Under the pieces are notes generated by a model. The model saw only the letters and a list, made by a program, of their open reading frames with translations. It searched no databases and had not been told where the DNA came from. DNA of 64,000 nucleotides from positions 11,444,118 to 11,508,117 of the forward strand of contig OX422185.1 in the NCBI GenBank assembly GCA_949130485.1. Reading direction: 5' to 3'. Both the position numbers and the translations under genes were made by a program. Shown here piece by piece: positions 20,112 to 57,395 of this stretch. Each line of letters begins with the position of its first letter. Within the stretch, counting starts at the first letter, position 1. This DNA comes from Agelas oroides (lineage: Eukaryota > Porifera > Demospongiae > Agelasida > Agelasidae).

Positions 20112-20124
20112 CTGAGTCATGGAG

Positions 20125-20308
20125 TGGGTGAGAGAGGAAGAGAGGGATGGAGAGAGGAAGAGAGGGAGTGAGAGAGGGAGGGAGAGAGGAAGAGAGGGAG
20201 GGAGAGAGGAAGAGAGGGAGTGAGAGAGGAAGAGAGGGAGGGAGAGAGGAAGAGAGGGAGTGAAAGAGGAAGAGAGGGAGGGAGAGAGGAAGAGAGGGAG
20301 AGAGTGAA
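20125..20308. repeat. Purine-rich (GAGAGGAAGAGAGGGAG) tandem repeat
   Basis: About 9-10 units. On the host strand it is pyrimidine-only and lies about 15 bp upstream of the exon 3 acceptor, at the 3' end of the 37-kb intron. Confidence 0.95.
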
Positions 20309-20395
20309 AATAAGAAAAAAAGAATAGAGAGTGTTGTGTAAAGTGGGGGGATTAATACCAACTGACACATCATTCCACACACACTCACAGAGTCC

Positions 20396-21393
20396 TAGCC
20401 TCATTTCCAGGCCTTCACACCATCCAGTTTTTGATCACTTTCAGATTTCAAAAACGAAGGGGGAAGGCCTGGTCCATTATATCACGTGAATATATCAGTA
20501 TCTACCTAGGTAGACGAGGGGGGGAGGGGGAAGTGTCATGCATGCAGATAATAGTTGAACATGTAGCCATTTGTCCTCTGTGGGCAGCTACGTATCTACA
20601 TACTATTAGGACAAGGAATTGTCATGAATGTAGAAGCTGGGTGAAAATTTTACTTAATGTCCATATGCAATGTACACACAAAAAACGCTAAAAAAGAGTG
20701 TTAAATATGTACAGAACAAATATAATATACAACAAACATATAATTCAGAGAAACTTGCCATTCAACTCACTCACCCGGGTTCACCCCCCCCCCAAAATGC
20801 AAATGCACAGTAGCCTCATTCCCAGGCCACTCGCAGATTTTATCTCACATGTGGAGCAATCTGGGAGTGGCCTGGGGACGAGGCTACATGCACAGCATAC
20901 CGAACTATGCTAAGCATTGCTTAGCATTTGCCAAACAAGGAGTGGCAGGAAACAGGTAATATCATGGCCTCAGACTCCTGTAGAAAAGGTATATACGTAT
21001 GCGGCTGAAGGGCTTTAATCTCTGAAGATAAGCCTGCCCTCCCACGCCTTTTTATTGGTAAAGGTGTTTTAGCTGTGTCATACACCCACAGTATTTATTA
21101 TGCAAACAGAAAAGCAGTAGTAACATGCATTTCGCGCACGCATTCTTCCTTTTGAACATGGAGCAGCACGTCTTTCGCTTCGCGAATGTTTGAAACTCCA
21201 GCACTTGGAGAAGAAACTACAAGAAAAGGCCTCAAGCTCGTTCTTTCGATGGAGGACTCCCCCCACCCCTCCCTCTGTCTACCTAGGTAGACACTGAGGT
21301 CATTCACGTGATAAAATGGACCAGGCCTTCCCCCTCTGTTTTTGCATACTGCAAGCGATCAAAAACTGGACGGCAGGAAGGCCTGGGAATGAG
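20396..21393. mobile_element. 1-kb TIR element, GCCTC(G/A)TTCCCAGGCCTTC family
   Basis: The left arm (20396-20530) and right arm (21258-21393) are inverted copies with the shared palindrome CTACCTAGGTAG and 'aaggcctggtccatt'. A small foldback MITE (20811-20885) is nested inside. A short relative is at 32369-32790. Confidence 0.78.
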
Positions 21394-21744
21394 TAGTACA
21401 GTGAAAAAGGTGGACTTTGTGTGAAACATTTGGCAAGAAACAAATCGAATTTCTTGGCTCAGGACTTTGAGGAGCTACTAAAGTTCATTGCTCATGGGTG
21501 TATTGAGTCGGAGATTAAACTACACAACTATCTCTGAAATTTCTTCACTGAAAATATGTGGCATAATTTGGTGTTGTTTTTAGTTAAAATGTTGTTATTG
21601 TAGTGAAAGTTTGTGCTTAATTTAGTTTTAGTTTCCAGCTAGTTGTCACTAAAACAACAATCAATGCAAACTAAAAAATCAAAAACACACAATATATATT
21701 TGATACATTCACTCAGCAATGTATGGGCCCTGTCCTTAGCAGAA

Positions 21745-22340
21745 GTTCTGCAGTACAGTGCTTCAAAAGTGATATTACAATCAAAACTAGATCTCTGTAG
21801 AGCACATGCCCTGCGCGCCACATAGCTATGTTCTGCAGTACAGTGCTTCAAATGTGATACTACAATCAAAACTAGATCTCTGTAGAGCACATACCCTGCG
21901 CGCCACATAGCTATGTTCTGCAGTACAGTGCTTCAAATGTGATATTACAATCAAAACTAGATCTCTGTAGAGCACATACCCTGCGCGCCACATAGCTATG
22001 TTCTGCAGTACAGTGCTTCAAATGTGATATTACAATCAAAACTAGATCTCTGTAGAGCACATACCCTGCGCGCCACGTAGCTATGTTCTGCAGTACAGTG
22101 CTTCAAATGTGATATTACAATCAAAACTAGATCTCTGTAGAGCACATACCCTGCGCGCCACATAGCTATGTTCTGCAGTACAGTGCTTCAAATGTGATAT
22201 TACAATCAAAACTAGATCTCTGTAGAGCACATACCCCGCGCGCCACATAGCTATGTTCTGCAGTACAGTGCTTCAAATGTGATATTACAATCAAAACTAG
22301 ATCTCTGTAGAGCACATATCCCACGCGCCACATAGCTATG
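21745..22340. repeat. 85-bp tandem repeat, 7 copies
   Basis: The phrase ttctgcagtacagtgcttca recurs every 85 bp from 21745 to 22256. Copies are nearly identical, so the array is young. The remaining stretch 22341-24300 shows a short (CAGA)n at 22637-22677 and a partial GCCTCGTTCCCAGG element at 23038-23105, and no gene. Confidence 0.95.
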
Positions 22341-22635
22341 CATGTGCTTCCATGAGGATAGGAACAAACCGTCGTCTCACAAATGCACACTGTATAGTGA
22401 ACCCTAGGAACAGTGAAACCGTCATCTCACGTTGTACATATAACATGGTATCTTGGTATGCTTGATAGGTGTGCCCATGATGCCAGAACTCACAATGCAG
22501 GGTTTTAAGCGCTTGTAGAGTGTATCTAGCAAAAAGAAGCACAGACAAGGCAGTTTTTCAACGTTTCCCACAGTTTGAAGGTATTTAGCAGTAATAGAAC
22601 AGCATGGATCTGGAGAACTGGCGCTTTTTTATGCT

Positions 22636-22675
<40 letters not shown>

Positions 22676-24244
22676 ACAATGACAGATGGACACGACCAAT
22701 CACTTTACCTCTTGCACATGCACGTGGAGTAATAAACAATGGAATAATGATGAATTTCTACCCAGGACATGTATCTTCAATTTGACAATTAGTTTATGAT
22801 GTGACTATCATTGATGACGTTATGACATAGTAAAAGGTGAATACTATTGCTTGCTGTGTAATTACATTTCTACCCACACAAGTTGCTCTAATAACAACAT
22901 GCATGGCAAAATTTATCACTCATGGGTGTCCTGAGTTGGAGACTACACAATAACAAAGAATGCAATACCAGAATTGGAAACCTCCCATGTACGTAAATCT
23001 GCGCATGGATTATAGCATAAACCATAGTAATGAGTTGTAGCCTCGTTCCCAGGTCCCACCCAGCCTTCCATATTTTCATTCACGTGTGAAGAGAACCTGG
23101 GAACATATAGTACTCCCAACAGGAAGTGTGTTTCTGAAACAAAGGGTAGGGTATAGGGTCGGGCAAGGGTTTCATTGTTTCAGAAACAGTGCGGGGGAGG
23201 CTATAGGTTGCGGTACACTTATTTCTCCAACTTAGTTGCTAGAACGAGACTACTACAAACTATTCCTGAAATTTCCTCACTGAAAATATATCTGGAGGTG
23301 TTTTTTTTTTAGATGTTACTAATTTTGGTTTCATTTAGTTTTAGTTTGCAGCTTTCGTTAGCTATGGTTGTCACTAAAACAACACTCAATAATGCAAACA
23401 GCAAACTGAGAAACACGAAACAAAGTTGCCATAGAACAAGACGGGACATCAAGTTTGTCAAGTTTTTGGCACAGCATAGCACCAACTCCCTTGCTGGTTA
23501 GTTGAGCCAAATTTTCCGGCTACAGTGGTTGGAAGTTGGGGTGTTTGGACATGGTCTGCTAAATGGCTGCACTTGCTGTTCTTGACAGCTTCTTTGCAGT
23601 CCCCGCAATGGCTCTGGCTTAAAAGAATTGCAGTGAATGTTAAATATTGGAGCCATTACCCAGCTCTATACTGTAACAGTGCCGAGAGATCCTCACAGAA
23701 AATATGTATGCCACCACTTCAACGCCAGCAAATGAAAGCCTAATAGGTGCAGATACCACCATACATGTACAAAGTGCCAGGTCCCCACATCTGGCTGGAC
23801 TGCCCATAGAACCAATCAAGAGTGCATAAGAACAGGCAGCTTCAGTAAGAGTGTGTAACTCCAACAGAAGCCCGTAGTTTGGTCAAAATTATTGAACCAT
23901 ACTAAAAATAGAACATTCAGTCACGTGCTTAGCAACAATGGCTTATGTCTACCAGTATGCACGTACGTACATATTACTATTTTTATTACTGGCGGTAAAT
24001 TCTGACCAGTTTCAAACATTTTATGGAGTTACACGCTCTTACTCAAGCACCAATCTTATGCGCTCTTGAACCAATCCAGAATGTCAGGGCCAAGCCACTC
24101 CCCCAAGCAGCTATGTACTACTCTGCAGCTTGTCAACCCTCCAGGCCAGCAAGACCTCTGCTACTATGTCCCCAATTAGTCCTCAAGAACTGGAAATGTC
24201 TTTTGCATCTGTGGGACAGTAATGGCAAAGTATCCTTTGCAAGG

Positions 24245-24591
24245 GCCTGGAAACAAGGCTACTTGGTAACCTGCAAATGTTCAACCAATTTTCAGTTTAC
24301 CTGCTGATGTTTGGTGAACTCAAAAACTTGTCTTTGTAGAATCATACACTAACAGTAGTAGCACAAAAAGGGACTGCAGTGTACACGTAATGATGTACAT
24401 AGGCCTATGAAAAAAAAAAAGAGATAGAAAAACTGCAGACCCAAGATAAAAGGCTAAAAGCATTGAAAAAAGACAATTGCATGCAACTGTCATACGTGTG
24501 CAAAACAAATCAAGTGTAGCATGGTGATGTAGGAAAGGCGTACGTAGTTTCTATGTCAGATCAAATTTATCACCAATGCTACAGTGTCCAA
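24245..24591 (-). other. 3' flank of array gene 1
   Basis: Contains blocks shared by the other units: 'ttttcagttta' with 'tgatgtttggtgaactca', 'acactaacagtagtagcac', and 'gatgtacataggcct'. It probably holds the 3' UTR; no clear AATAAA was identified. Confidence 0.6.
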
Positions 24592-25656
24592 TCAAACCAC
24601 CATTGCAATAATGGCACTAAGCCCAGTGACAGCCACAGAAACTTGCAGCAAGACAGAATAGGCGGAAGAGCTGTCGATGGTGTTTCGGCAAAATCCTGGG
24701 CTGCTCATTTCACAGAAAGACCACAGTACATGGTTGGTAGTGCGGAGATTTGAAGCACTAGTACTGGACAAAGTGTTATAGGACAAAGTGTTATTGTAAA
24801 GGTTGTTTAAACAGCAGTCTGCCCCAGTCCGGTACATATCAAGCGCAATCTTGCACAAAATAGGACAGGTTGTGGCATTCACAAAACATCGACCCTGTAC
24901 GTCACTCACTAACTGAGATGTTTCAGTTTCAAAACAGAATCGTTCATACTTGTTCACGCCACAACCATTAATCATGGACTGTGCAGATTCTTCATGTGTA
25001 CGCCCACAACTCCTCATGATAGTGATAAACGGTGTAATGTAGTTTGGGTTGCAAAACAGCCTGTTGATATGGTAGGCTATATCAGACTGTGGACAGACCG
25101 TTTCATCCTGGTTTCGCACAAAACGCAAGGTACTCAAACAGTTACTGGGGGACCGGAAGTTACAAGTTGACCATGGGGTAGAAATCGGTTGTTGTCCAGA
25201 TTGAATATAAGCGTTAGTGATTAAATAGTTAGCACAGCATCCGGTGCTGTCTGTAAGCTGTTGCAGCGAGCTGTTACAAGAAGGATCACAACTAAATTCG
25301 CAGTTGGACACAACCGAATCCACAAGTCCAGTTACAGCAGTATCGTATTTCAATTCATAGCAAAAGCCTCCTCTTGCACTACGACCGCACTCCTGTTCCT
25401 TCCGCAGTGCTTCATTGTTGTGTCCACACTCTGCAAACACATCCAGTAGCTGCTGACCAACTGATGCATTGCTGCATCGAAGAGAGTCATTGCGACGTTG
25501 CAGTTCTGTGAAGGTACAGGTTTGGTTTCTCACAGGTAGGAGAGGAACTTGACGCTTTTCAATAGATTTCACTTCACTAGCTCTGCTGCCATCAACATGG
25601 CTAATGCAGAACACAGTAGCCAACACTATCAGTGCTGTAACTACAAAAGATTTCAT
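24592..25656 (-). CDS. Array gene 1: secreted 24-Cys protein, predicted GPI-anchored
   Basis: 354 aa from MKSFVV; a second ATG four codons upstream (25668) is possible, but the start aligned across paralogues is this one. Residues 1-23 form a signal peptide. Next comes a short propeptide ending in KR before QVPL, a likely proprotein-convertase site. The mature part has 24 cysteines in two modules, each with a CC pair (STGCCANY; GADCCLNN) and a WS-x-C end. Several N-x-S/T sequons are present. The tail IDSSSAYSVLLQVSVAV runs hydrophobic to the last residue, as in GPI signals. A long block (about 25014-25487) is almost identical to gene 2, while the 3' third has diverged. I do not recognise the family. 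An extracellular surface role is inferred; ligand and function are unknown. Confidence 0.88.
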   Translation of the reverse strand: MKSFVVTALIVLATVFCISHVDGSRASEVKSIEKRQVPLLPVRNQTCTFTELQRRNDSLRCSNASVGQQLLDVFAECGHNNEALRKEQECGRSARGGFCYELKYDTAVTGLVDSVVSNCEFSCDPSCNSSLQQLTDSTGCCANYLITNAYIQSGQQPISTPWSTCNFRSPSNCLSTLRFVRNQDETVCPQSDIAYHINRLFCNPNYITPFITIMRSCGRTHEESAQSMINGCGVNKYERFCFETETSQLVSDVQGRCFVNATTCPILCKIALDMYRTGADCCLNNLYNNTLSYNTLSSTSASNLRTTNHVLWSFCEMSSPGFCRNTIDSSSAYSVLLQVSVAVTGLSAIIAMVV

Positions 25657-25720
25657 TTTCGTGCTCAATGCAAACTATAAAAGCCTCAAATACTAACTTG
25701 TTGTGTAGTGCTCACTGCTT

Positions 25721-25728
25721 CTTTTATA
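25721..25728 (-). promoter_or_regulatory. TATA box of array gene 1
   Basis: TATAAAAG on the minus strand, 65 bp before the ATG, followed by AAGCAGTGAGCAC. It is the same arrangement as gene 3. Confidence 0.75.
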
Positions 25729-25739
25729 CCTAACACTAA

Positions 25740-26000
25740 GAATCCTCTAGCAAAAGTGCGGTTGAACAACTACTACAATAAGCCCAACCATCCTTTTCAA
25801 TAGGTGGAACTAATCCTACTGGTATGATAACAGTGAACATAAACCAACATCCCACTTTACCAAAGTACACCCACCTGTGGTGGAAGCAGTACAGAGAAAG
25901 TGAAAGTGTTCAGGTGCATGACATGTGCAACACTGCTACATGCATACACTTACAGAACATTTGCATATGCATTTTCAGGGAGACTAGCTGAAACATACAC
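25740..26000 (-). promoter_or_regulatory. Upstream region of gene 1, shared with gene 3
   Basis: The stretch with 'caaaagtgcggttgaacaac' is nearly identical at 39146-39180. Further out, 'actttaccaaagtacaccca' (25854) is the module found beside several units. Confidence 0.6.
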
Positions 26001-26092
26001 TAGAATCTTTCAGTGGCTTCTCAGTTGCCTTCTGCATAAATGATGACTGGAACATCACAAACACACAAACACAGTCCACCCTCTGTTTGAGG

Positions 26093-26412
26093 TAGTCTCG
26101 TGCCCAGACCCAACCCTCTCACGAGGAAGGGTCTGGTGTCACAAGCCTGAATCCTTGGGCTTGCGGAAGTGTTGAAGCCTTGTAATTGTTAGTGTAGAAT
26201 TACAAATTGCTCAGTGTTGGATAATGAATCTCATAACACACTTTGAGCGGTACGATTGAAGTACTTCTTCTCGCTTCCACACTATTCCAATAAACACTGC
26301 TCTGCGATTTGATTGGCCGCTCCAAGCTTCTGGAGCTAGCCCAAGGATTAGGACTTGTGACACCAGACCCCTTCTCCTCGCGTGAGCTGGGTGGGGTCTG
26401 GGGACGAGACTA
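26093..26412. mobile_element. MITE, GTCTCGTCCCCAGACC ends
   Basis: Ends TAGTCTCGTGCCCAGACCC and GGGTCTGGGGACGAGACTA; internal inverted arms include 'cttgggcttg' and 'tagcccaagg'. A truncated relative is at 60186-60448. Confidence 0.75.
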
Positions 26413-26520
26413 TGTTTGAGGAGCCACTAAAATTTATCACTCATGGGTGTCCTGAGTTGGAGACTACACAACAACATAAAACACAATACCGGAAATGGAC
26501 TGGAGCATTCAGTCAAAACA

Positions 26521-27022
26521 TAGCCTCGTTCCCAGGCCTTCAATCACAGGCCTGGTAAAACTCCTACGTAGAATGACGTCAGGTGGACATAAGGTGGACG
26601 TAGGACGTTTGGAGGCGTGGTACTTTCGGTAAACCACAGTCATAGGAACTAAGCTAAAGCAGGCGCTATTGCGGACAGGCGTTCAACAACGACAGAGCAG
26701 TCTGGTGTTACTTCTCGGGTTCAGGAAGCCGCCTGACAGATGCATAAAGGACGTCTGAAGCCAGGGAATAAATGTCCTTTTATGTACATGTATTCCCTGG
26801 CTTCAGACGTCCTTTATGCATTTGTCAGGCACATGTACTGCTCTGTCGTTGGTGAATGCCTGTCCGCGATAGCGCCTGCTTTAGCTTAGTTCCTATGACT
26901 GAAAGTACCACGCCTCCAAAAGTCTTACGTCCACCTTACGTCCACCTGACGTCATTCTACGTAGGAGTTTTACCAGGCCTTCCACCGCGTTAGCTGTGAT
27001 TGAAGGCCTGGGAACGAGGCTA
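26521..27022. mobile_element. 500-bp foldback element (large palindrome)
   Basis: Starts TAGCCTCGTTCCCAGGCCTT and ends AAGGCCTGGGAACGAGGCTA. The two arms are inverted copies over most of their length (e.g. 'ggcgctattgcggacaggcg' against 'cgcctgtccgcgatagcgcc'). They meet at a short centre near 26775-26790. Confidence 0.9.
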
Positions 27023-27109
27023 GTCAAAACGTCGGCATGTCAAAACGTCAGCATGTCAAAACGTCAGCATGTCAAAACGTCGGCAAGTTATTTTCCAAGC
27101 TCAAGTTGG

Positions 27110-27235
27110 TAACAGATAACCTTCTCTTCATACACTAGAATCATACACTAACAGTAGTAGCAAAAGTACACAGATAATAATGTGAAGAAAAAAAAAGAAA
27201 ACTGCAGGCCCAAGATAAAAGGCTAAAGTGTCTAA
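27110..27235 (-). pseudogene. Orphan 3'-flank fragment of an array unit
   Basis: Matches the 3' flank of genes 1 and 2 ('acactaacagtagtagca', 'gcccaagataaaaggctaaa') but no coding sequence follows upstream. It is a remnant of a lost or rearranged seventh unit. Confidence 0.65.
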
Positions 27236-27241
27236 ATAATA

Positions 27242-27328
27242 GTTAGACGAGGGATCTACGCGATTTAGAAACCCGAGGGCCCGAGGGTTTCTAAATCGCG
27301 TAGATCCCGTTGGACGAAGCGTCTAACT
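27242..27328. repeat. Perfect hairpin
   Basis: Inverted arms GGGATCTACGCGATTTAGAA and TTCTAAATCGCGTAGATCCC around a GC-rich loop, with further outer complementarity (ttagacg/cgtctaa). A degraded relative is near 39600-39735. Confidence 0.85.
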
Positions 27329-27508
27329 TATTTAGAGTATAGCAACAGCGCGTTGGCAACGACGCATTTCGTTGATTTATCGGCGACTTGCTAGTACCTG
27401 TTTGTTTCGTTGCTGGACATGGAGATGGAGCAACTTCTGAGCGACGAACTCTTGGAGTAGCTGCGAAGCGACATTGAAGTTGCCGCCTGCTGCTAGCGGC
27501 CAGGGCAG

Positions 27509-28915: not shown

Positions 28916-28919
28916 CTAC

Positions 28920-30405: not shown

Positions 30406-30474
30406 TTTGTGCTCAATAAAACTATAAAATCCACAGATGTTTCCAGTACTAACTTGCTATGTAGCAGTCACCAC

Positions 30475-30482
30475 CTCTTATA
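30475..30482 (-). promoter_or_regulatory. TATA box of array gene 2
   Basis: TATAAGAG on the minus strand, 70 bp before the ATG. The flanking sequence farther upstream (30490-30660) has repeated 'ccaccccttttt' and differs from genes 1 and 3. Confidence 0.65.
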
Positions 30483-31950: not shown

Positions 31951-31956
31951 TATCTG

Positions 31957-32264
31957 CATAAAGGAATTTAGATGTTATGAGGTGAAAATAGAGGAAAGTG
32001 AAAAGGCCGGCAGCCACCTGGAGTCGAACCCAGGACACCTCTGGCTTGAGCAGCCAGTGCTCTGCCACTGAGCCACGGCAACCGGACAACCACCAACCCT
32101 CACAATCCTCTATATGTACTGCACAGGTGGTACAGAATGCCTCAGTCACACACCTGGCAGCCACTCAGTACATACTGAGTGGCTGTCCTGGGTTTGACTC
32201 CCGGTGGCTGCCGGCCTTTTCACTTTCCTCTATTTTTGCCTCATAACATCTAAATTCCTTTATT
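31957..32264. mobile_element. Head-to-head pair of tRNA-derived SINEs
   Basis: A minus-strand tRNA-like segment (32009-32080) has box A TGGCTCAGTGG and box B GGTTCGACTCC. A second plus-strand copy (about 32170-32215) has GGTTTGACTCC. Both are followed outward by the same tail 'ttttcactttcctctatttt'. The acceptor stem does not pair and U33 is absent, so these are SINE heads rather than a working tRNA gene. The middle piece recurs at 9525-9620. Confidence 0.65.
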
Positions 32265-32368
32265 TCCAGCATGAGGCAAGATGCTCTGAGTACTATCCGC
32301 ATGCTATACGCTGGTGGGTGAGGTTTCAATGGCCAACTATTTGAGCTACGTAAACACATCAGACAAGG

Positions 32369-33220: not shown

Positions 33221-33554
33221 CATGTAATATGTACAGGGTCAAAGACACCAGTCATAACAGTACTGCCGGCTCCAGGGTGGTAATTTTTGTGCGAGCATAT
33301 TGTCAAAAGCCACACTATCATGGCCATCTCTTACATGCCAATCTGTTTAGACTAGTCTTGTTCCCAGACTGTCATGCGTGGGCAAAGGCTCTGCATGGTT
33401 ATGTCAATGATGCATAATTTGAAATACATATGCACAAATGTAATCTAGCTGTGGTGGCTAGAGGGACCTAGTAAAGCAAGATTTTTCATTAATCTGTTCT
33501 CCTCTTGAGTGCAGCTAGCTAGCACAAAAATACGGCAGATATGTGAGTATTCCA

Positions 33555-33961
33555 CACTGGAAAAAACTGGAGGTTGATTTAACCCAAGATGGGTCACCTC
33601 ATTTGCAGGACCTTGGCCTAAACTGCCTCCCACTTTTACCACAGTGGAGGGTTACAGCCTTTGGTACTCAAAAGTTCTAATAAGGCATGAATACTTGTGT
33701 AAAAGTTACATAATTACTGCCCAAACATTTGCCCATAGCATGAATATTTTTCAGAGTTCAATTAATAACACATGAATATAGACTGAGTTCCACTCCCTTC
33801 TGGCAGAAACAAAATGAATTTCATTTGCAACCAAAATCTAGAGATGTACCATGGCAAAACCATGGCAAAAGGAGGTGGGTCACTCCCTGGACCTGGATGA
33901 ATCCAGACTGCAACTGAGATGACATTTCTTGGGTTAAATCAACCTCCAATTTTTTGCAGTG
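33555..33961. mobile_element. CACTG-type MITE, complete copy
   Basis: Ends CACTGGAAAAAACTGGAGGT and ACCTCCAATTTTTTGCAGTG; the best-preserved copy of the family seen at 666-1141. Confidence 0.8.
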
Positions 33962-34415
33962 GATCATCTATGGTATGTGAGTATTCCACGTACCAATTAA
34001 CTCTTTCTGGTCTGTGAGGTACTTTTGTAAACTGCATACAATCACAGTGTTTACAGACCCGCACTCAGTGATTCACCATCCAAGCTTCCATACTAGTAGT
34101 GTCAGCATTTTGTAGTTTTGTGCCTCGCCATCAGTATACTTCCAGAGACAAACACCTAGCAAGCAAAGTGTCTTTCATGTCTGATAAATGTACATACAAG
34201 GAGATGCGTACAAAACATTCCGACATACCATAGATGATGGAATACTCACATAATTATGCATGGGTCAAAGTTCACTAACTGATTTGTTTTTTGGCAGGTG
34301 AATGGAGAAACCTCCTAGAAAGAAGCGAAGAGCTGTGCAGCCACAGTATTATCGTGTTCTTGTTTCCCATTTAAGCTGAATTAGCTATCAAGGTAACGGT
34401 GGATCACGTGCACCA

Positions 34416-35166
34416 AGATGGACGCCCTACCAGAAGTGCTGCGAGTTGTGATTTCCGAAGCACTCACTTCTGGAAAGAAGCTGTCTTGGAGTGTCTGGGA
34501 CAACGGAGAAATAACTATATAGTGTGAAGCTGCTCTGGAAGCCAGAAGTGATCGATGCACCAATTCGGTTGGAAATTCCACCTCAACCGGCAACCTCAAT
34601 ATCGCACCTCGGACCTCGAGTACATATCAAAAAGAAATGCTCGTCTTCTAGCTGGAGAAGAAGTAAACAGCGGCTGAAAAACTTTCTGGAAAAGAAAAGC
34701 AGCCAGGAAAGGCAAAAGTACGGCACTGATGTTATTGGAAGAAGTCAGGAATCTAGCTCCGCCAGCTCCAATTAGTGCACCCCAACCGTTGGCACCTCTT
34801 CAGTCTCAATCCAGTGATGACCGAAAGGATGCGGACAGGAGCCCAGAGGATGCAGGTTTTAAAGGAGGTAATGAACTGTATCAGTCAGGTGACCCTGAGC
34901 ATGAAGAAGATGACCGCTCCCTTGGTGAGGTACTGCAAGGATCACGCAATATTGTGTATGAGGCCAAAGATGATACAACAGGTGTAAGCTTTGAAAAGAA
35001 TGGAGTGAAAGAATGGGTGCCAATTGTTGTGACTAACTATGGCAAGGAGCTAAGTGTGAAAGAAATGGAGAGATGCAAGAAAATTGTGTACTTTCAGAAT
35101 GAAAATGGTACCCAGTTCTCCATAAGGAAAGGAAAATGTCAGTTTCCCACACCAATTGCTAGATGA
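34416..35166 (+). pseudogene. Decayed transposon ORF
   Basis: Opens MDALPEVLRVVISEALTSGK, hits a stop near 34520, and continues in another frame with VKLLWKPEVIDAPIRLEIPP and a basic stretch (RRSKQRLKNFLEKK). A third, 145-aa frame at 34729-35166 is acidic, with WVPIVVTNYGKELSVKEMER. Frames are broken by at least two shifts. The LSW-basic layout recalls transposon-associated ORFs, but I cannot name the family. Confidence 0.45.
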
Positions 35167-35317
35167 ACTCGTTCACGGTTAAAATCAGAGACACCATAGT
35201 GTTACTTCTGTGTTGTGATAATTTTCAGTGTTTGTTGTGTACTGTGTTCTAGTCTCATGGGCCAAAGGTGGCTTGCTGTCCTAGGGACGAGACTTAAAAA
35301 GATTCATTCATTCATTC

Positions 35318-35497
35318 ATACCATAGATGATGGAATACTCACATACCATAGATTATGGAATACTCACATACCACAGATGATGGAATACTCACATACCATA
35401 GATGATTGAATACTCACATACCACAGATGATGGAATACTCACATACCACAGATGATGGAATACTCACATACCACAGATGATGGAATACTCACATACG
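35318..35497. repeat. 25-bp tandem repeat, about 7 copies
   Basis: Unit 'acataccacagatgatggaatactc' with a few substitutions (single copies also near 34240 and 33963). It amplifies the inner edge of the long-TIR element. Confidence 0.92.
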
Positions 35498-35722
35498 TAC
35501 CTGCCGTATTTTTGTGCTAGCTAGCTGCACTCAAGAGGAGACCAGATTAATGAAAAATCTTGGTCCCTCTAGCCACCACAGCTAGATTACATTTGTGCAT
35601 ACGTATTTCAAATTGTGCATCATTGACATAACCATGCAGAGCCTTTGCCCACGCATGACAGTCTGGGAACAAGAGTCATCTGTGCATGCACATACATTGA
35701 ACTATGAACATGTTATTAGCGT

Positions 35723-39121: not shown

Positions 39122-39129
39122 CTTTTATA
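39122..39129 (-). promoter_or_regulatory. TATA box of array gene 3
   Basis: TATAAAAG, 65 bp before the ATG, with AAGCAGTGAGCAC following as in gene 1. Confidence 0.75.
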
Positions 39130-43029: not shown

Positions 43030-43114
43030 TTTCGTGCTCAGAATCAGAATACAAAATCACATACGTAGGCTTCCAATAGCAACTTGCTGTGTGGTACGTC
43101 TGCACTCACTGCTT

Positions 43115-43122
43115 CTTATATA
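43115..43122 (-). promoter_or_regulatory. TATA box of array gene 4
   Basis: TATATAAG, 86 bp before the ATG, followed by AAGCAGTGAGTGCAGACGTA; the same string is at gene 5. Confidence 0.75.
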
Positions 43123-47815: not shown

Positions 47816-48856
47816 TCAAACTAGCATCGCAATAATGGCACTAAGCCCAGTGACAGTCACAGAGACTTGCAGCAAGACAGAATATGCAGAGGAGCTGTCA
47901 ATGGTGTTACGGCAAAATCCTGGGTTGCTTATTCCACACAGAGACCACAGCATACGGTTGGTAGTGCGGAGATTTGAAGACTGAGGGTTATTGTACAGGT
48001 TGTTCAAACAGCAGTCTGCACCCGTCTGGTACATATCGAGTGCAACCTTGCAAGAAACAGGGCAGGTTTCAGCGCTCGTAAAACACTCGCTCTGTACTTC
48101 ATCTGCTAATCTAGATGCATTAGTTACAGCTTCAAAGCAGAAGCGTTCATATCTGTTGACACCACAATTGTTAATCAAGGACTGTGCAGTTTCTTCAAGG
48201 CTGCAGTTCCTTGTGATATTGATAAATGCAGTAATGTAGTTTGAGTTGCAAAACAACCTGTTGATACGGTAGGTTATCTCAGACTGAGAACAGACCATTT
48301 CATCCTGGCGTTGCACAAACCGCAAGGTGCTTGAACAGTTATTGGGGGGCTGGAAGTCACAGTTTGACCATGGGTTAAAAATAGGTTGTTGTCCAGATCG
48401 AAAATATGCATTTGTGATTAAAAAGTTAGCACAGCATCCTGTGTTGTCCCTAAGCTGCTGCAGGGAGTTGTTACAGGAGAAACTGCAGAATGAACTGAAG
48501 CAGTTGGAGCGAACTGAACTCACAAGTCCAGTTATAGTAGTATTTGATCTTAATTCATAACAAAATCCTCCCGTTTCATTACGACCGCACTCCTGTTCCT
48601 TACGCAGTGCTTCATTGTTGTGTCCACACTCTGCAAACACATCCAGTAGCTGCTGACCAACTGATGCATTGCTGCATTGAAGAGAGACATTGCGACGTTG
48701 CAGCTCTGTGAGAGAACAAGGCTGGTTTCTTTCAGGCGGGAGAGAAACTTGACGCTTTCCAACAGATTTCACTTCACTAGCTCTGCTGCCATCAACATGG
48801 CTGATGCAGAACACAGTAGCCAACACTATCAGTGCTGTAGCTACAAAACACTGCAT
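47816..48856 (-). CDS. Array gene 5: secreted 24-Cys protein, mosaic of two subtypes
   Basis: 346 aa from MQCFVATALIVLATVFCISH. The frame stays open for 75 more codons upstream, across the TATA box, so the longer ORF is not the protein. Propeptide end SVGKR before QVSLPP. All 24 cysteines are kept. The first part (SNASVGQQLLDVFAECGHNN) follows genes 1 and 2, while the last third (FTSAETCPVSCKVALDMYQT) follows genes 3 and 6. This is a recombinant pattern. The C-terminal GPI-type tail is present. Upstream DNA pairs with gene 4. Confidence 0.9.
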   Translation of the reverse strand: MQCFVATALIVLATVFCISHVDGSRASEVKSVGKRQVSLPPERNQPCSLTELQRRNVSLQCSNASVGQQLLDVFAECGHNNEALRKEQECGRNETGGFCYELRSNTTITGLVSSVRSNCFSSFCSFSCNNSLQQLRDNTGCCANFLITNAYFRSGQQPIFNPWSNCDFQPPNNCSSTLRFVQRQDEMVCSQSEITYRINRLFCNSNYITAFINITRNCSLEETAQSLINNCGVNRYERFCFEAVTNASRLADEVQSECFTSAETCPVSCKVALDMYQTGADCCLNNLYNNPQSSNLRTTNRMLWSLCGISNPGFCRNTIDSSSAYSVLLQVSVTVTGLSAIIAMLV

Positions 48857-48941
48857 TTCTGTGCTCAATATGAACAGACAATGAAAGTCACAGATGTTTC
48901 CAACAGTAACTTGCTGTGTGGTACGTCTGCACTCACTGCTT

Positions 48942-48949
48942 CTTATATA
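48942..48949 (-). promoter_or_regulatory. TATA box of array gene 5
   Basis: TATATAAG, 86 bp before the chosen ATG. This placement also argues against the longer ORF, whose ATG at 49081 would lie upstream of it. Confidence 0.78.
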
Positions 48950-49521: not shown

Positions 49522-50199
49522 TTAAGGGTGGTCGGAACTAACAACTGTGCGGATGCAAAAGTATGCAAAAAGCTGTTGTCATAAAACAACCTGGGCAATT
49601 ATTTTGATGACCCCAATCCACTTACTGGAAGCCTCGGGTGTGCCTGCGTTTACATTGCAGCAAGGAAGCTGGATTACTGTACACAAGAGGCGGTTCTTTC
49701 TCAAAGAGTAGCTAGGTGCGGTTTACATAACTCTGTAAAACTCGGCCTGCGTTCACTGGAATTGAACTTTAGTTTGTTTTGCGACATCCTGGGGGAGTGG
49801 ACTTGACCGTAACAGAACGTTTTTCGTGAAATACGCGCTGAAAAGCCAGGTATTATACGCCGCTAGCCCGTGAAAACGGCGAAGCGCGTGCTTTTTGTTT
49901 GTCTTACGATGAAAAGCGTTCTGTTATTGGATTCCTCTCGTAATAACAGCTCAGTAGACGATGTTCCAAGTCAGTAAGTTACTCCGTTCGAAAGTTTTAT
50001 CAACAAATATGTCTGAATTTAGCCGCTCCACTGTTCAGCTTGTGGACAAGCTAGATTCATAAACTTGTACGTGTGTTTAGTAGTCCACACGGACGCTAAG
50101 TTGCAGCAGGCTGTGCGTTTATAAGCCTTTTTATTGCCGAGATACAACCCCCTAGCAACCGGCCGTGCGCGCGCCCCCAATTAGTTCCGACCACCTTAA
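49522..50199. mobile_element. TTAA-flanked TIR element, 0.68 kb
   Basis: TTAA-GGGTGGTCGGAACTAA at the left and TTAGTTCCGACCACC-TTAA at the right. The TTAA duplication suggests a Kolobok- or piggyBac-type non-autonomous element. No transposase. Confidence 0.82.
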
Positions 50200-50489
50200 A
50201 CTCCTGAGGGGACAGCAGCAAGAGGAGAGAGAGGAGTTGCAGGCGACGAATTGAAATAGAGCCATCAAATTCCTTCTTTTAGAAACAGCCTATCTGTACT
50301 AATTCATTCTCACCTTAGCAATTACAGGTCTCCAACTCATTACATGTTTGGAAAGGTTTCCTGGTCTGAATGTTAGAACGTCACCATATGTAGAATGCAG
50401 ACAAAACAAATACATCCTCAAGTTGCTATCTCCCATAAACAACATCTACAGACTCATAACTACAGCTAAGTAAGACACACTCCACCTAG

Positions 50490-50760
50490 ACTTCCCGATA
50501 AGACCACCCTCCCACTTTACCAAAGTACACCCACCTGTGGTTCTCAAACTGGAAGAGGGTACATTAAAACCTGTTGTACAAGGTGGAAGTGTTGAATGTA
50601 GCTACGATGTACCTTGCAACTCCTCACAATGCACTGCATTCTGACATTTGCTACCAATTTCATAGTCTTTGCTGCAAGCCAGACCCAACCAACCCCAGCA
50701 AAAGCAATCCACACTGAGGTTGGTTGGGTTGGGCTTGCGAGACTATCAATTTGGCTCATC
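50490..50760 (-). pseudogene. Orphan flank module of an array unit
   Basis: 'actttaccaaagtacaccca' with 'gaagagggtacat' and no adjacent coding part; followed by a small hairpin (agacccaaccaaccccagc / ggttgggttgggcttgc). Confidence 0.55.
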
Positions 50761-51479
50761 TTTGTGGCTGAGGAACTTTAGAAGAAGTACTACCCGGCTG
50801 AGGAGCCCTACCACTACCATAACAGGTAGGACAAGCTCATGTGCACAAAATATCATATAATCCAAAGTTGGACAATGGAAGCTTGCAAAATGATCTGTCA
50901 TAATAAATAGAAATTTAACCCGGATTGATCCCCAAGTGAAAATCAACGTGAAAGAAGATAAAGATGCAGTTTTAGATTGCTTAATTGGCTCAGGAATCCA
51001 ATTAATGACCTAGAACTCATGTGACACACTGAGCTTGTCCTACCCTCAGGAGGAGGTCTGACACTTGTGATGTCATAATACATCAACACGTGATCCTGAT
51101 TGTCAAGTTAATTACTAACCTCCTGCATTCCATTGCTTCAAGAGCGATTTCTGGGCATCAGAAGTTTCTAGCGTGCTGGGTCCACTCAGGTTGGGGGGGT
51201 ATTTTCAACCATACTAAAGCTGTCTATTAGGTCGAGATCGATCACTGCCGCTCATCTAGCTCTCAACAGCCACATAAATGCCGTTTGGAGGTCACAAAGG
51301 TATGCAATGTTACTTCTGACTGGCGAGACACTTTCAGCATCACGAAAACCCCCGTAAACCCATTATGATCTTTGCCGCACAGCGTTTCCGATTGTTGTAT
51401 TGATGATTTTTAGTCCTTGGAATGTTCATTAATGTATAGCATACTGTGACTGTGCAGGACCTCCTCTGCCCCCTGACTC

Positions 51480-51800
51480 CACCTAGACTTTAGGATAAGA
51501 CCATCCTGTACCAAAGTACGTAAACCCACCCGTGGTTTTCAAACAGGAAGGGGGTACAGAGAAATGAAAGCAGGTAACAATCAAGGTGGCAGCAGCTAGC
51601 ATGCACCATGAATACACTTACAGGAGTCATTGGGTACTTTCAGGGGGGACTAGCTACAAATCTACTGTAAAAATAGGAAAACTTTTGCAATGGTCGAATG
51701 ATTGTGACATTTCAAGGAAAATTCAATACACAATGTGCAGAAGCAGAAAGTAGTGCACTCAATCCTTTAGTCCCTTGCACATGTAACAGGTACAGGGAGA
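51480..51800 (-). pseudogene. Second orphan flank module
   Basis: Closely matches 32985-33220 ('gaagggggtacagagaa', 'caaggtggcagcagc', 'tagtgcactcaatcctttag'). Another relic of a lost unit. 50761-51479 between the relics shows no gene. Confidence 0.6.
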
Positions 51801-52173
51801 AAGACAACAGTCGTACCAGTGCAGTGTTTTATATGACTTGCACTCAGTGATTCACCATCCAGGCTCCTCTACTAATAGTGTCAGCATTTTGTAGTCTTGT
51901 GGCTCAGAACTGCTTAAACTATTTTTGCCGTACATGTTAACCACTCTCCCTGCTGTGTGTTCAGTAAGTTTTATTGCACTGGGTTGGATTCTGTGTGAAT
52001 TATCTGATACCTGATGTTGATTAATAGATAAACCACGGGTAGGCAGGGATTTATGGACCATAAATGACCCAAACCGGAGGGCAAGGGTTGTTTATGGCCA
52101 TCTACCATGGTTTATCTGTTATATTCTCCACTCTAATTGGTTCTTTGGCAACAGCCAACTTGGCAACCAAGTA

Positions 52174-52591
52174 CAGTCAACGAGTAAAGATTGGCTTTGT
52201 CTTGCTCTACTAGAGTGGAGAGAGTGCTGCAAGCAAAACAGTTGCTTCACGTTCATCAAAACCGACAAAAAAAGTCGTGAAACTGTCAGCTGGTTACACA
52301 CCAAAAAACACCAAGAAGCCAAACAAAGTGATAATTACACAGAGTGGCACCAGTGGTGTAATGAGAACTGCCCCAAGACCAAGCCTCTTCCTGTACTAAG
52401 CTTCCTCAACAAGTGGTTTTTGCACTATGTGGTGGAGACTCAAGGTAAAAAGGTATCCACCAGCTACACAATACACAGTTTGTTGGGTGGTTTGCAGCAC
52501 CATACACTATCACTCAACCCTGCTGCTGCCAGGTTTCTTGATAAGAAGAACTCATTCAAGCACCTGGCAAGTTTACGTTGGGTTTGGTGAG
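52174..52591 (+). pseudogene. Fragment of a ZMYM/Crypton-like (DUF3504-type) ORF
   Basis: One plus-strand frame is open without a start: NENCPKTKPLPVLSFLNKWF, then TSYTIHSLLGGLQHHTLSLN and ARFLDKKNSFKHLASL, ending in a stop. The order (conserved W, then LL-GLQHH and FLDKKN) resembles the N-terminal part of DUF3504/Crypton-type recombinase domains. No catalytic part is seen. A weak identification. Confidence 0.35.
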
Positions 52592-53164
52592 CAACAAGGT
52601 AGAAATGACATTGGAAACTGTTTTACCAACAACATTGTGGCCTAACGATTGGTGGATTTGCATCTGGAGCACTTGGGCTGCTGCCCAAATCGATGTCCTC
52701 CACCATAACATTGTTGTCAATGCTAGTAGACTTGCTTACTGATTGGGAAAGTTGGTAGATGTGCCACGTAAGTCCAAAAAGAAGGCACCAAGTGAGTAAA
52801 CACTTTGTAAGTACTTTCCGTGTCCGTCTTTTTTTGCGTACTTGCTTCTGGGTTCTATTTCTAAGTATTTCCCATGAAGTGAATAGCAGAATTGGCATCC
52901 ATCCTTTAAGCACTTCAAAATCTCAATGACAAGCCTGTTCTGTGCGGACACACATATGTGCACAAAAGCTACGTAGTTATAGTTTCAATTACTAAAACTC
53001 CAAAACCCCTTACTAAAAGAGAAAAAAGGTAGTTTTCTGTTTAGTATAGTTATGGTTTCTTCTCTGATGTTTTTTTAAGCTTAGTTACACCTTCCAGTTT
53101 TGCTAGTTAGTTATACTACAATTAACTAAACGGCCATAATAAAAGATATTTAGTTAAAGTTATA

Positions 53165-53616
53165 CAGTGGAACTCCACTATTCTGAACCACTGAAATGCG
53201 GACACACCGTTTTAACAGACATTTTGCTCAGGTACGGATTGCATTCCCATTAACACCACGCACCATAACCCCTGAAATGCGGACACTTCACTATTCCACA
53301 AAGCGGACAGGTTTTTCAGTCCATCTAGTACCTGGACTGTACAAAATTTACATACGCTCACTTGTCTCTCACGCAAGGTTGTCCACCACCGCTGATCAAC
53401 TCAACAACTGAACATTATAATAGCACTGGTACCCACAGTACTAGCCTCTGGTCAGACTTTCTCTCCAGTGCACAGCAAAGGAAGAGCTCTGGAACGACAA
53501 CGTGCCTTCATAGCGCTCAACAACATGAGTACGCATTGCCACACAAATACAGATGCCTCTATATTCCGGACACACAGTGTGGTCCCCTCGGTGTCCACAT
53601 TTGAAGGGTTCCACTG
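53165..53616. mobile_element. Tigger/pogo-type MITE
   Basis: CAGTGGAACTCCACTATTCT at the left and 'ttgaagggttccactg' at the right, both flanked by TA. The CAGTGGAACC ends and 'gcggacac' repeats are typical of pogo/Tigger-derived MITEs. It lies in the gene 6 3' flank. Confidence 0.8.
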
Positions 53617-53826
53617 TAGTTACGTAACTAAAACAACAATGACACAGCTATTGATGTACATAGGTAGGCCTGTAAAACAAATACAAAAAGTGCAGTACCG
53701 TCTCAAGACAAAAGACTCTATATACGTATATAACAGCATTGACAAATTGCATGCAAATGTAAAGTGTGAAAAACAATGCAGTTGTCAAAAGTGATTTGCT
53801 AAAAGATGTATTAATTCAGTGTCCAT

Positions 53827-54876
53827 TCAAACCAGCATCGCAATAATGGCGCTAAGCCCAGTGACAGCCACAGAGACTTGCAGCAGGACAGAATATGCAG
53901 AAGAGCTGTCGATAGTGTTTCGGCAAAATCCTGGGTTGTTCACTCCACACAGAGACCACAGCATAGGGTTGGTAGTGCGATAATTTGAAGACTGAGGGTT
54001 ATTGTACAGGTTGTTCAAACAGCAGTCTGCACGAGTCCGATACATATCGAGAGCAACCTTGCAAGCAACAGGGCAGGTTTCAGCACTCGTAAAACATTCA
54101 CTCTCTACTTCACTCACAAACTGAGATGCATTAGCTCGAGCTTCAAAGCAGAAGCGTTCATATCTGTTCACACCACAGTTGTTAATTGCAGACTGTGCAT
54201 CTTCTTCACGGCTGCAGTTCCTCATGATGTTGATGAACGGAGTCATATAGTCTGGGTTGCATGACAGCCTGTTGGTACGGTAGGTTAGCTCTCGCTGAGA
54301 ACAGAACATCTCATTCGGGAGTCGTGCAAAACGCAAAGTGCTTGAACAGTTATTCGGGGGGCGGAGGTCACACAGTGACCACAGGTTTAGATTAGGCTGT
54401 TGTCCACTTTGAACATAAGCATTTGTGAGTAAATAGTTAGCACAGCAGCCGGTACTGTCCCTAAGTTGCTGCAGTGAGTTGTTACAGAAAAAATCACAGG
54501 AACTGAAGCTGAAACAGTTGGAAACAACTGAACTTGCACGTTGAGTTAAAGTGTTATTAGAACTTAATTCGTAACAAAATCCTCCTGCTTCATTACGACC
54601 ACACCGCTGTTCCTCCCTCAGTGCTAGATCATTGCGGCGACACCCTGCGTATACATCCAGTAGCTGCTGACCAATCGATGGACTGTCACATCCAAGAGCG
54701 TCATTGCGACGTTGCAGCTCTCTGCTGGAACAAGATCCTTCTAGGTTTCTCACAGGCGGGAGAGGAACCTGACGCTTTTCAACTGACTTCACATTGCTAA
54801 CTCTGCTGCCATCAACATGGCTAATGCAGAACACAGCAGCCAACACTATCAGTGCTGTAGCTACAAAACACTTCAT
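53827..54876 (-). CDS. Array gene 6: secreted 24-Cys protein, predicted GPI-anchored
   Basis: 349 aa from MKCFVATALIVLAAVFCISH; the frame has an ATG 22 codons upstream (54942), but the aligned start and the TATA position at 54945 favour this one. Propeptide end SVEKR before QVPLPP. 24 cysteines; module 1 has FSFSSCDFFCNNSLQQLRDS, module 2 FTSAETCPVACKVALDMYRT. The tail is SSAYSVLLQVSVAVTG and hydrophobic to the end. It is the first gene of the array in transcription order and lies about 200 bp from a 1-kb minisatellite. Confidence 0.9.
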   Translation of the reverse strand: MKCFVATALIVLAAVFCISHVDGSRVSNVKSVEKRQVPLPPVRNLEGSCSSRELQRRNDALGCDSPSIGQQLLDVYAGCRRNDLALREEQRCGRNEAGGFCYELSSNNTLTQRASSVVSNCFSFSSCDFFCNNSLQQLRDSTGCCANYLLTNAYVQSGQQPNLNLWSLCDLRPPNNCSSTLRFARLPNEMFCSQRELTYRTNRLSCNPDYMTPFINIMRNCSREEDAQSAINNCGVNRYERFCFEARANASQFVSEVESECFTSAETCPVACKVALDMYRTRADCCLNNLYNNPQSSNYRTTNPMLWSLCGVNNPGFCRNTIDSSSAYSVLLQVSVAVTGLSAIIAMLV

Positions 54877-54944
54877 TTTTGCACTCAATACAAAGTATGA
54901 AATCCACAGATGTTTCCAGTATACTAACTTGCTGTGTAACATTT

Positions 54945-54952
54945 CTTATATA
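54945..54952 (-). promoter_or_regulatory. TATA box of array gene 6
   Basis: TATATAAG, 69 bp before the ATG. The upstream sequence beyond it is unlike the other five and soon meets the minisatellite. Confidence 0.72.
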
Positions 54953-55095
54953 CCCAGTGCAGATGCAGCCATACCTAGTCAACCCCCTGGTTCCATAGAA
55001 CAGTAAATGCACTTTCATTTAGTGGTCTGCCTGCTCAATGCTAGTAACGGAAGCAGCCATACCTAGTCACGCCCCTTGGGAAATAACCAGAGTCA

Positions 55096-56155
55096 GTAGC
55101 CTCAATGTCAGAAGCCTCAATGTCAGTAGCCTCAGGTCAGTAGCCTCAATGTCAGTAGCCTCAATGTCAGTAGCCTCAGGTCAGTAGCCTCAATGTCAGT
55201 AGCCTCAATGTCAGTAGCCTCAATGTCAGTAGCCTCAATGTCAGTAGCCTCAATGTCAGTAGCCTCAATGTCAGTAGCCTCAATGTCTGTAGCCTCAGGT
55301 CAGTAGCCTCAATGTCAGTAGCCTCAATGTCAGTAGCCTCAATGTCAGTAGCCTCAATGTCAGTAGCCTCAATGTCAGTAGCCTCAATGTCAGTAGCCTC
55401 AATGTCAGTAGCCTCAATGTCAGTAGCCTCAATGTCAGTAGCCTCAATGTCAGTAGCCGCAATGTCAGTAGCCTCAATGTCTGTAGCCTCAATGTCAGTA
55501 GCCTCAATGTCTGTAGCCTCAATGTCTGTAGCCTCAGGTCAGTAGCCTCAATGTCAGTAGCCTCAATGTCTGTAGCCTCAGGTCAGTAGCCTCAATGTCA
55601 GTAGCCTCAATGTCAGTAGCCTCAGGTCAGTAGCCTCAATGTCAGTAGCCTCAATGTCAGTAGCCTCAGGTCAGTAGCCTCAATGTCAGTAGCCTCAATG
55701 TCAGTAGCCTCAATGTCAGTAGCCTCAATGTCTGTAGCCTCAGGTCAGTAGCCTCAATGTCAGTAGCCTCAATGTCAGTAGCCTCAATGTCAGTAGCCTC
55801 AATGTCAGTAGCCTCAATGTCAGTAGCCTCAATGTCAGTAGCCTCAATGTCAGTAGCCTCAATGTCAGTAGCCGCAATGTCAGTAGCCTCAATGTCTGTA
55901 GCCTCAATGTCAGTAGCCTCAATGTCTGTAGCCTCAATGTCTGTAGCCTCAGGTCAATAGCCTCAATGTCAGTAGCCTCAATGTCTGTAGCCTCAGGTCA
56001 GTAGCCTCAATGTCAGTAGCCTCAATGTCAGTAGCCTCAATGTCAGTAGCCTCAATGTCAGTAGCCTCAATGTCAGTAGCCTCAATGTCTGCAGCCTCAA
56101 TGTATAGCCTCAATGTCAGTAGCCTCAATGTATGGCCTCAGTGTATAGTCTCAAT
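55096..56155. repeat. 15-bp minisatellite (TCAATGTCAGTAGCC), about 1.06 kb
   Basis: About 70 units with variants 'tctgtagcc', 'gccgcaatg' and a shortened 'ctcaggtcag'. The variant order repeats at larger scale: the gccgcaatg unit at about 55456 and 55871 lies in near-identical context, offset about 415 bp. The open frames (MSVAS repeat, LRLLT repeat) are artefacts. Confidence 0.97.
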
Positions 56156-56325
56156 GTCTGTACAACAAAAACAGCCTAGTGATGCTTTCACAAATCTTAG
56201 GTGCAAGAATTTTGATAAGACCCAAATGATATTCAAAGTGATAACAGGAAGTTTTGGTCACGTCCCTTAGTGGAAGTATACTACTTTATGGAAACATTGT
56301 TTGACGCTGGTCTGGCAGCCTTTGG

Positions 56326-56396
56326 AAGTATCAGTCCTGGAAAAGGTATTGACTAGGTACCATAGTAAATACCTTTTCCAGGACTGATACTTCCCA
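56326..56396. repeat. Perfect hairpin of about 70 bp
   Basis: GGAAGTATCAGTCCTGGAAA pairs with TTTCCAGGACTGATACTTCC around a short centre. The spacer from here to 57395 has no gene; (ta)-rich sequence lies near 56826-56860. Confidence 0.85.
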
Positions 56397-57395
56397 AGTG
56401 CATCGTGGGGCGAGCGAGTTGCAGGAAATAGTGTTTCATAGCACTACCTTTTCCCACTTGCATACATCTCACATAACAATAGCCTCATTACCATACACGT
56501 ACAATACAAACATATATACTTACGTAGTATATGCGCCCATAGTACTTCCCATAGACCTACATGACATAATATTTTCCCATATTTTATAGTTTGTATTTCA
56601 TAGCCTGCAGGGCATATGCTGTGTCGCAACCACGACATGTGCTTTAATTGGAATGCACTCGTAGCCGCTACTCAAACAATGATAACCTTTTATTATAGAT
56701 GAAAATGGCATTATTTATTAACTCTCGCACTATATTTTTCACTCACTGGCGGCTCATGAAAATACGTAGGTAAAGACGCACACTCGTGCAATATCCAGCC
56801 ACATTACCTTCTCACCCACCAAATAATATATACGTATACATATATATATGTATATACAGACAAAATTTCACCACAAGTCTGGGGCTCAGTCACACTTGCC
56901 CTAATGATATATATCCATGGCAATGGTTAATTGCTATGCTTTCTGTGATTCTGATTGGTTTCTGCAAATGAACAGACCCCATACTATCAACAGGATACTA
57001 TATGCACATGCAGGGGGACACCATCCCTCAAATACTGCCGTCTGATTGATCAGAATAGACTATCTTATGGGAAGACAACAAATGCAATAATGCAAAACAC
57101 GTGGACAAAAAAATAAGAGGGGGCCACCCCTAGCGCCGCACGCAGTGTGAATGGAGCCGCAAAATGAGGCCAAACTATTTTACAAACTAAATGACAACAA
57201 CTAATAATAAATACATGGGAAAGCCCAGAACATGAGTATGAAGTAAACACATATATAAGTCAACAAGTATAGTTATGAAAATGCCTTTACCAGGTGTGCA
57301 TAATTCATGGTTAAATTTTTCAGCCCTTGAGATGACTGGCAAAATTGACATAAATTTTACCCGTGGCAAAACTTCCCACTCTCATGCTAACTCAC

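What the first reader, a model, noticed from the sequence alone, without database searches (positions are those of the whole stretch)
20112..57395. Six intronless secreted-protein genes nested in one intron of a WDFY3-like gene
Host exons at 57396-57641 and 19601-20111 are adjacent in the protein: CA + G restores a codon, and the alignment to WDFY3 across the junction needs no gap. The 37-kb intron between them holds six complete paralogues on the same strand, each with its own TATA box. A whole tandem family growing inside one intron is unusual. The host transcript would have to read through six promoters and six 3' ends. This could couple expression of an autophagy scaffold with a surface-protein family.
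Basis: partly seen in the sequence, partly recalled or inferred. Interest (0 to 1): 0.9.

Follow-up and report, generated by a model that had tools for sequence, protein, structure and literature searches.

The report
Six surface-protein genes inside WDFY3 intron
In an unnamed animal genome, six related genes for secreted, probably membrane-tethered proteins sit head to tail inside one 37-kb intron of the conserved gene WDFY3, each with its own promoter-like element; a relative lies inside an intron of another conserved gene, UPF1, so this looks like a nested gene cluster of a kind already known from other animals, though large for its kind.

Summary
Observation confirmed at sequence level. 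The host is a WDFY3 orthologue on the minus strand, colinear over at least 106 kb of a 19.4-Mb contig. Exons 57641-57396 and 20111-19601 join in frame (phase 2, GTGAGT...CTCAG). Residues coded just before the junction raise the match to WDFY3 by 12.5 bits on average over 79 proteins (best of 13 in-intron decoys 1.9); relatives have fewer, not more, residues there, so no exon need be missing. The 37,284-bp intron holds six intact single-exon paralogues on the host strand, under purifying selection (dN/dS 0.24-0.41), each with a TATA-like box 72-93 nt before its ATG.

Coupling to autophagy is not supported: another member lies antisense in a UPF1 intron and one appears intergenic. Duplicated blocks of g1-g5 include the TATA box, so they spread as DNA, not as retrocopies. 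Best reading: compact, self-contained genes entered an intron and multiplied there. A similar case is known (Sgs4 and ng genes in a Drosophila dunce intron). New here: six same-strand paralogues, WDFY3 and UPF1 as hosts, and an undescribed family of two homologous Cys-rich domains with signal peptide and GPI-like tail. No RNA evidence was available.

The parts
58504..58683 (-). Host WDFY3 exon Ea (5' limit provisional)
   Evidence: Joins Eb in frame, phase 2; tblastn hit by 1 of 120, phmmer 36 of 120
57396..57641 (-). Host WDFY3 exon Eb, last exon before the nest
   Evidence: acag|G ... CA|gtgagt; weak alone; 12.5-bit gain test
20112..57395 (-). 37,284-bp host intron holding the six genes
   Evidence: GTGAGT...CTCAG ends; no WDFY3-like tblastn match at E<=1e-3 between 20,200 and 57,300; the ten other host introns measured in the window are 136-2259 bp
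19601..20111 (-). Host WDFY3 exon Ec, first exon after the nest
   Evidence: tblastn hit by 78 of 120 listed proteins; joins Eb with CA+G
13380..14378 (-). Host WDFY3 exon Eg (5' limit provisional)
   Evidence: tblastn cluster of 67 of 120; ends TCG|gtgagg
5196..12239 (-). Host exons Eh-Eq coding PH-BEACH and the start of BEACH (12239-12107, 10868-10786, 10649-10454, 8194-8082, 7518-7370, 6986-6912, 6240-6094, 5871-5727, 5315-5196)
   Evidence: Join without a stop; Pfam Beach 2e-20 and PH_BEACH 7.6e-16; neurobeachin chain 1mi1 6.6e-20
24592..25656 (-). Paralogue g1, 354 aa
   Evidence: 100% over 354 aa to database protein P0043
29344..30405 (-). Paralogue g2, 353 aa
   Evidence: 90% identical to g1, 100% to P0038
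38005..39057 (-). Paralogue g3, 350 aa
41971..43029 (-). Paralogue g4, 352 aa
   Evidence: 100% identical to P0006, on two contigs, the longest 5.94 Mb
47816..48856 (-). Paralogue g5, 346 aa
   Evidence: 98.6% to P0020, on two contigs, the longest 5.94 Mb
53827..54876 (-). Paralogue g6, 349 aa
   Evidence: 98.1% over 308 aa to P0029, contig 5.94 Mb
25721..25728 (-). TATA box of g1 (-72)
30477..30482 (-). TATAAG of g2 (-77), weaker variant
   Evidence: Aligned block
39122..39129 (-). TATA box of g3 (-72)
43115..43122 (-). TATA box of g4 (-93)
48942..48949 (-). TATA box of g5 (-93)
54945..54952 (-). TATA box of g6 (-76)

Best explanation
A compact, promoter-bearing, single-exon gene for a secreted two-domain Cys-rich protein entered a WDFY3 intron as DNA and multiplied there by duplication of units of about 1.1-1.6 kb. 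Each copy is transcribed from its own promoter and probably yields a GPI-tethered or shed extracellular protein; the host pre-mRNA runs through all six and splices Eb to Ec. Shown: intact host exons and splice sites, intact paralogues under purifying selection, a conserved promoter-like block, duplicated flanks, host exons in order beyond the window. Inferred: transcription, splicing of the long intron, secretion and GPI anchoring, order of events. Any interference with the host is a side effect to be measured, not an evolved coupling.
For: Junction tests; host colinear from C3:11544544 (residue 33) to 11438287 (residue 2634 of a rodent WDFY3), more exons in the flanks; dN/dS 0.24-0.41 in 15 of 15 pairs; a TATA-like element 62-101 nt before the ATG in 8 of 8 intact close members (six here, two on C11), against about 0.05 expected per 45-nt slot from its frequency in the intron, the slot being chosen after inspection; duplicated blocks run past both ends of the frames and include both TATA boxes in 8 of 15 pairs, which together link g1 to g5; a second nest in UPF1, antisense, and a member that appears intergenic. 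Tandem duplication explains the shared orientation.
Against: No RNA: neither the splice nor the start sites are shown. In 7 of 15 pairs (all five with g6, plus g3-g4 and g2-g4) the duplicated block stops short of the TATA box; for g6 it reaches to 4 nt from it. TATAWAAG is also above expectation on the antisense strand of the intron (4 against 6 sense; about 1.1 expected). g2 has a degenerate box, and a distant C21 member has none in 125 nt. No A[AT]TAAA within 800 nt of g4-g6. Same-strand nests are the rarer kind in print.
Confidence: 0.85

Rival explanations
1. Evolved coupling: sense transcription of the nested genes and of WDFY3 regulate each other, for example by intronic polyadenylation of the host when the nest is active.
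For: Same-strand layout with six sense promoter-like elements; at mouse H13/Mcts2 an active nested promoter drives intronic polyadenylation of the host (PMC13309782, abstract and section list seen).
Against: A close relative sits antisense in a UPF1 intron and another appears intergenic; A[AT]TAAA on the host strand of the intron is neither depleted nor enriched (24 found, 23.9 expected by a first-order model; 35 on the other strand).
Confidence: 0.08
2. Broken host: WDFY3 is split here into two transcription units or is a non-functional allele, so there is no real intron.
For: Intron about 16 times longer than the longest of ten other host introns measured; Eb itself is poorly conserved.
Against: Consensus splice sites and matching phase; junction-proximal residues match WDFY3; exons in order over 106 kb on both sides; the six other genomic matches to the WDFY3 query cover only its C-terminal, BEACH-side part, though only 16 of 76 candidates were scored.
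Confidence: 0.04
3. Assembly artefact that placed the gene cluster between two host exons.
For: Long minisatellites in the region.
Against: Window lies inside a 19.4-Mb contig; near-identical copies of g4, g5 and g6 are assigned to a 5.94-Mb contig in database records, which may be another assembly; whether that contig also holds WDFY3 was not tested.
Confidence: 0.03

Closest known systems
Sgs4 and ng1-ng4 nested in an intron of dunce, Drosophila (PMC10835880, passages)
   Same: Cluster of short genes for proteins with predicted signal peptides, ng genes intronless and related to one another, inside one intron of an unrelated gene
   Different: Different proteins, host and phylum; here six full-length paralogues of about 350 aa, all on the host strand
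Nested intronic genes of the ctenophore Hormiphora and of the glass sponge Aphrocallistes (PMC8527503, PMC10282587, passages)
   Same: Genes inside introns of other genes; several per host and same-strand (parallel) cases reported
   Different: Those are genome-wide counts; no tandem six-member family in one intron is described in the passages seen
KRTAP10/KRTAP12 cluster in TSPEAR introns, human (recalled; one search listed two papers that I did not open, one search listed none)
   Same: Tandem family of intronless genes inside a host gene
   Different: Keratin-associated proteins; recalled only, not tested
[not shown]
   Same: Helical, Cys-rich; GPI-anchored receptors (recalled)

Membership tests
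WDFY3 (host) | PH-BEACH and BEACH domains | tested here: met
   Pfam Beach 2e-20, PH_BEACH 7.6e-16; the window holds only the start of BEACH
WDFY3 (host) | WDFY3-type N-terminal and middle regions, colinear | tested here: met
   Best-named matches are WDFY3 proteins; exons in order on C3, residues 33 to 2634 of a rodent WDFY3
WDFY3 (host) | C-terminal WD40 repeats and FYVE domain | tested here: inconclusive
   tblastn matches to C-terminal parts of listed proteins in L014; no domain scan of that part was run
Nested intronic gene | Whole nested gene between two exons of one host transcript | tested here: met
   Sequence level only:
Nested intronic gene | Independent transcription of nested and host genes | not testable with these tools
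   No RNA data; TATA-like boxes are indirect
Retrocopies | Copies lack the promoter DNA upstream of the transcript | tested here: not met
   Blocks include both TATA boxes in 8 of 15 pairs, linking g1-g5; g6 blocks stop 4 nt or more short
GPI-anchored secreted proteins | Signal peptide and hydrophobic C-terminal tail without cytoplasmic residues | tested here: inconclusive
   Read by eye from the alignment; no dedicated predictor was run
GDNF/GFR-alpha domain | Sequence profile or fold match | tested here: inconclusive
   [not shown]

The most novel reading that the evidence does not exclude
This two-domain Cys-rich family settles preferentially in introns of conserved, broadly active genes (two of the three loci with intact close members, holding 7 of 8 genes, are introns of WDFY3 and UPF1), so that open host chromatin keeps the array accessible, while six sense promoters in WDFY3 act as a switch between full-length host mRNA and nested surface-protein expression. 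The intronic share expected by chance was not measured.
Probability: 0.1. Interest if true: 0.75.

Novelty: new member of a known kind. Interest (0 to 1): 0.45.

Why it matters
It is a large same-strand nested array in a very conserved gene, so it offers a natural test of how a host transcript survives six internal sense promoters. It also uncovers an uncharacterised extracellular protein family with two homologous Cys-rich domains, without a credible Pfam or fold match here, and a second nest in UPF1 shows that nesting recurs within the family.
Full report
OBSERVATION. The window lies at C3:11444118-11508117 of an unnamed 259.3-Mb genome in 141 contigs; contig C3 has 19.4 Mb. On the minus strand it carries exons of one large gene. 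The joined exons 12239-5196 code for a PH-BEACH and the start of a BEACH domain (Pfam 7.6e-16 and 2e-20; neurobeachin and LRBA chains in the PDB). A search with the modelled host residues returned 129 proteins at E<=0.001, of which 120 were listed; about 74 of the 120 are named WDFY3 or WDFY4 in the names as printed, others are unnamed, hypothetical or other BEACH proteins. A rodent WDFY3 matches C3 exon by exon in order, from residue 33 at 11544544 down to residue 2634 at 11438287 (16 of 76 candidates scored); further exons were found in the flanking stretches. The six matches on other contigs cover only the C-terminal, BEACH-side part of that query.

THE JUNCTION. Exons 58683-58504 (Ea), 57641-57396 (Eb) and 20111-19601 (Ec) join into 312 residues without a stop, phase 2 at both joins. 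The intron begins GTGAGT and ends CTCAG, with a long pyrimidine-rich tract upstream of the acceptor. Of 120 listed proteins 79 have an alignment crossing the join by more than 20 residues on each side. Of 81 rows that could be judged, 68 have no gap within 3 residues, 61 none within 5 and 38 none within 8; at the Ea-Eb join 71 of 71 have none within 3. Against a simple reading: Eb by itself matches only 1 of 120 (Ea 36, Ec 90) and gave no tblastn hit. The telling test was joint: putting the last 30 residues of Eb before Ec raised the score by 12.5 bits on average over 79 proteins, positive in 77; 30 shuffles gave at most 3.4 and 13 decoy exons taken from inside the intron at most 1.9. The 79 are related to one another and not independent. 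In 36 proteins with both Ea and Ec matches the residues between them number 20 to 81, median 72, against 82 here, so no missing exon is called for. No WDFY3-like tblastn match at E<=1e-3 lies between 20,200 and 57,300.

THE NEST. The intron is 37,284 bp; the ten other host introns measured in the window are 136-2259 bp, those between Ec and Eg and upstream of Ea not being measured. It holds six intact single-exon genes on the host strand, 346-354 aa. Pairwise dN is 0.047-0.219, dS 0.115-0.587 and dN/dS 0.24-0.41 in 15 of 15 pairs, which is purifying selection. Five of six have TATAWAAG and g2 a TATAAG variant, 72-93 nt before the ATG, in an alignable block. The wider motif class occurs 39 times on that strand of the intron, about 0.05 per 45-nt slot; the slot was chosen after inspection. 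TATAWAAG occurs 6 times sense and 4 times antisense in the intron, about 1.1 expected, so an excess is not confined to the six genes. Pairwise duplicated blocks are 1.1-1.6 kb and reach up to about 360 bp beyond the stop codon; they include both TATA boxes in 8 of 15 pairs, which link g1 to g5, and stop short of it in 7, among them all five with g6. Copying was thus at DNA level at least for g1-g5. Host-strand A[AT]TAAA signals in the intron number 24, with 23.9 expected from a first-order model, and 35 on the other strand.

THE FAMILY. The proteins read as signal peptide, a KR-Q site, two Cys-rich domains and a hydrophobic tail ending at the C-terminus, as in GPI-anchored proteins (by eye; no predictor was run). 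The two domains are homologous (hhalign probability 98.8, 126 columns). Three members scanned singly gave no Pfam match at E<=1; among 70 aligned members Pfam gave only stray weak matches, best E 0.12. An AlphaFold model (mean pLDDT 75.4) has no clear relative in the two searches made. A database search found 68 proteins at E<=0.01, several on megabase contigs; five on a 1.87-Mb contig and five with a 5.94-Mb longest contig, among them near-identical copies of g4, g5 and g6. In a tree of 63 sequences (six here, two from C11, 55 of the 68) the window genes are interleaved with those, which suggests that the duplications are older than the split between those sequences; many supports are low.

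OTHER LOCI. In the own genome two searches gave 29 and 39 matches as lower bounds. Close full-length members are the six, C11:333043-334122 and C11:6988207-6989361 (match range), with a fragment on C5; the rest are distant, 26-43% identical. The first C11 copy lies on the minus strand inside the intron C11:332265-334985 of a UPF1 gene on the plus strand: exons before and after it join in frame and the helicase exons before it match UPF1 chains at 1.2e-104. The second C11 copy lies between a CUB-domain frame and a Death-domain frame and appears intergenic. Both have a TATA-like box, 62 and 101 nt before the ATG. One distant member was read in full: a single open frame with the same two-domain plan by eye (C21), without a TATA box in the 125 nt before its ATG.

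INTERPRETATION. The simplest account is a self-contained gene unit that entered an intron as DNA and multiplied in tandem; orientation follows from tandem duplication. The antisense nest in UPF1 and the apparently intergenic copy argue against a special tie to WDFY3 or autophagy. Nested genes are common in animals (PMC8527503, PMC10282587; passages), and clusters are known, as Sgs4 with four ng genes in a dunce intron (PMC10835880; passages). Same-strand nests are the rarer kind (PMC8467205; passages), and an active nested promoter can cause intronic polyadenylation of its host (PMC13309782; abstract), so interference with WDFY3 is a fair prediction to test. Transcription, splicing and localisation remain unproven.

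Noticed in passing
C11:332265-334985 of the window's genome (locus L011, 4266-6986): A 57%-identical family member lies antisense inside an intron of UPF1, a second nest of the same family.
   Followed up: yes
window 32008-32083, minus strand: tRNA-Glu (CTC) inside the WDFY3 intron, overlapping an inverted repeat with 80-nt arms 95% complementary (31958-32037 and 32184-32263); gene or tRNA-derived repeat.
   Followed up: partly
window 33349-35681: Inverted repeats of 123 and 68 nt (95-96%) enclose about 2 kb with a 145-aa plus-strand ORF (34729-35166), like a DNA transposon.
   Followed up: no
window 55092-56162, 17497-18563, 21745-22340: Large minisatellites: 15 bp x 72, 111 bp x 9.6 and 85 bp x 7.
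   Followed up: no
Database proteins P0038 and P0043: Records matching g2 and g1 at 100% run past their TGA stop as Trp, as if the gene caller had used code 4 on this contig.
   Followed up: no
window 3447-4499, plus strand: 350-aa ORF with a weak match to T5orf172 (E 0.14, below the cut-off).
   Followed up: no
C11:6991526-7011001 (L012, L032, L033): Repeated long frames, some like the one with two Death-domain stretches that was scanned, alternating with Kelch-like ones (my reading, not scanned): a tandem array of two gene types.
   Followed up: no
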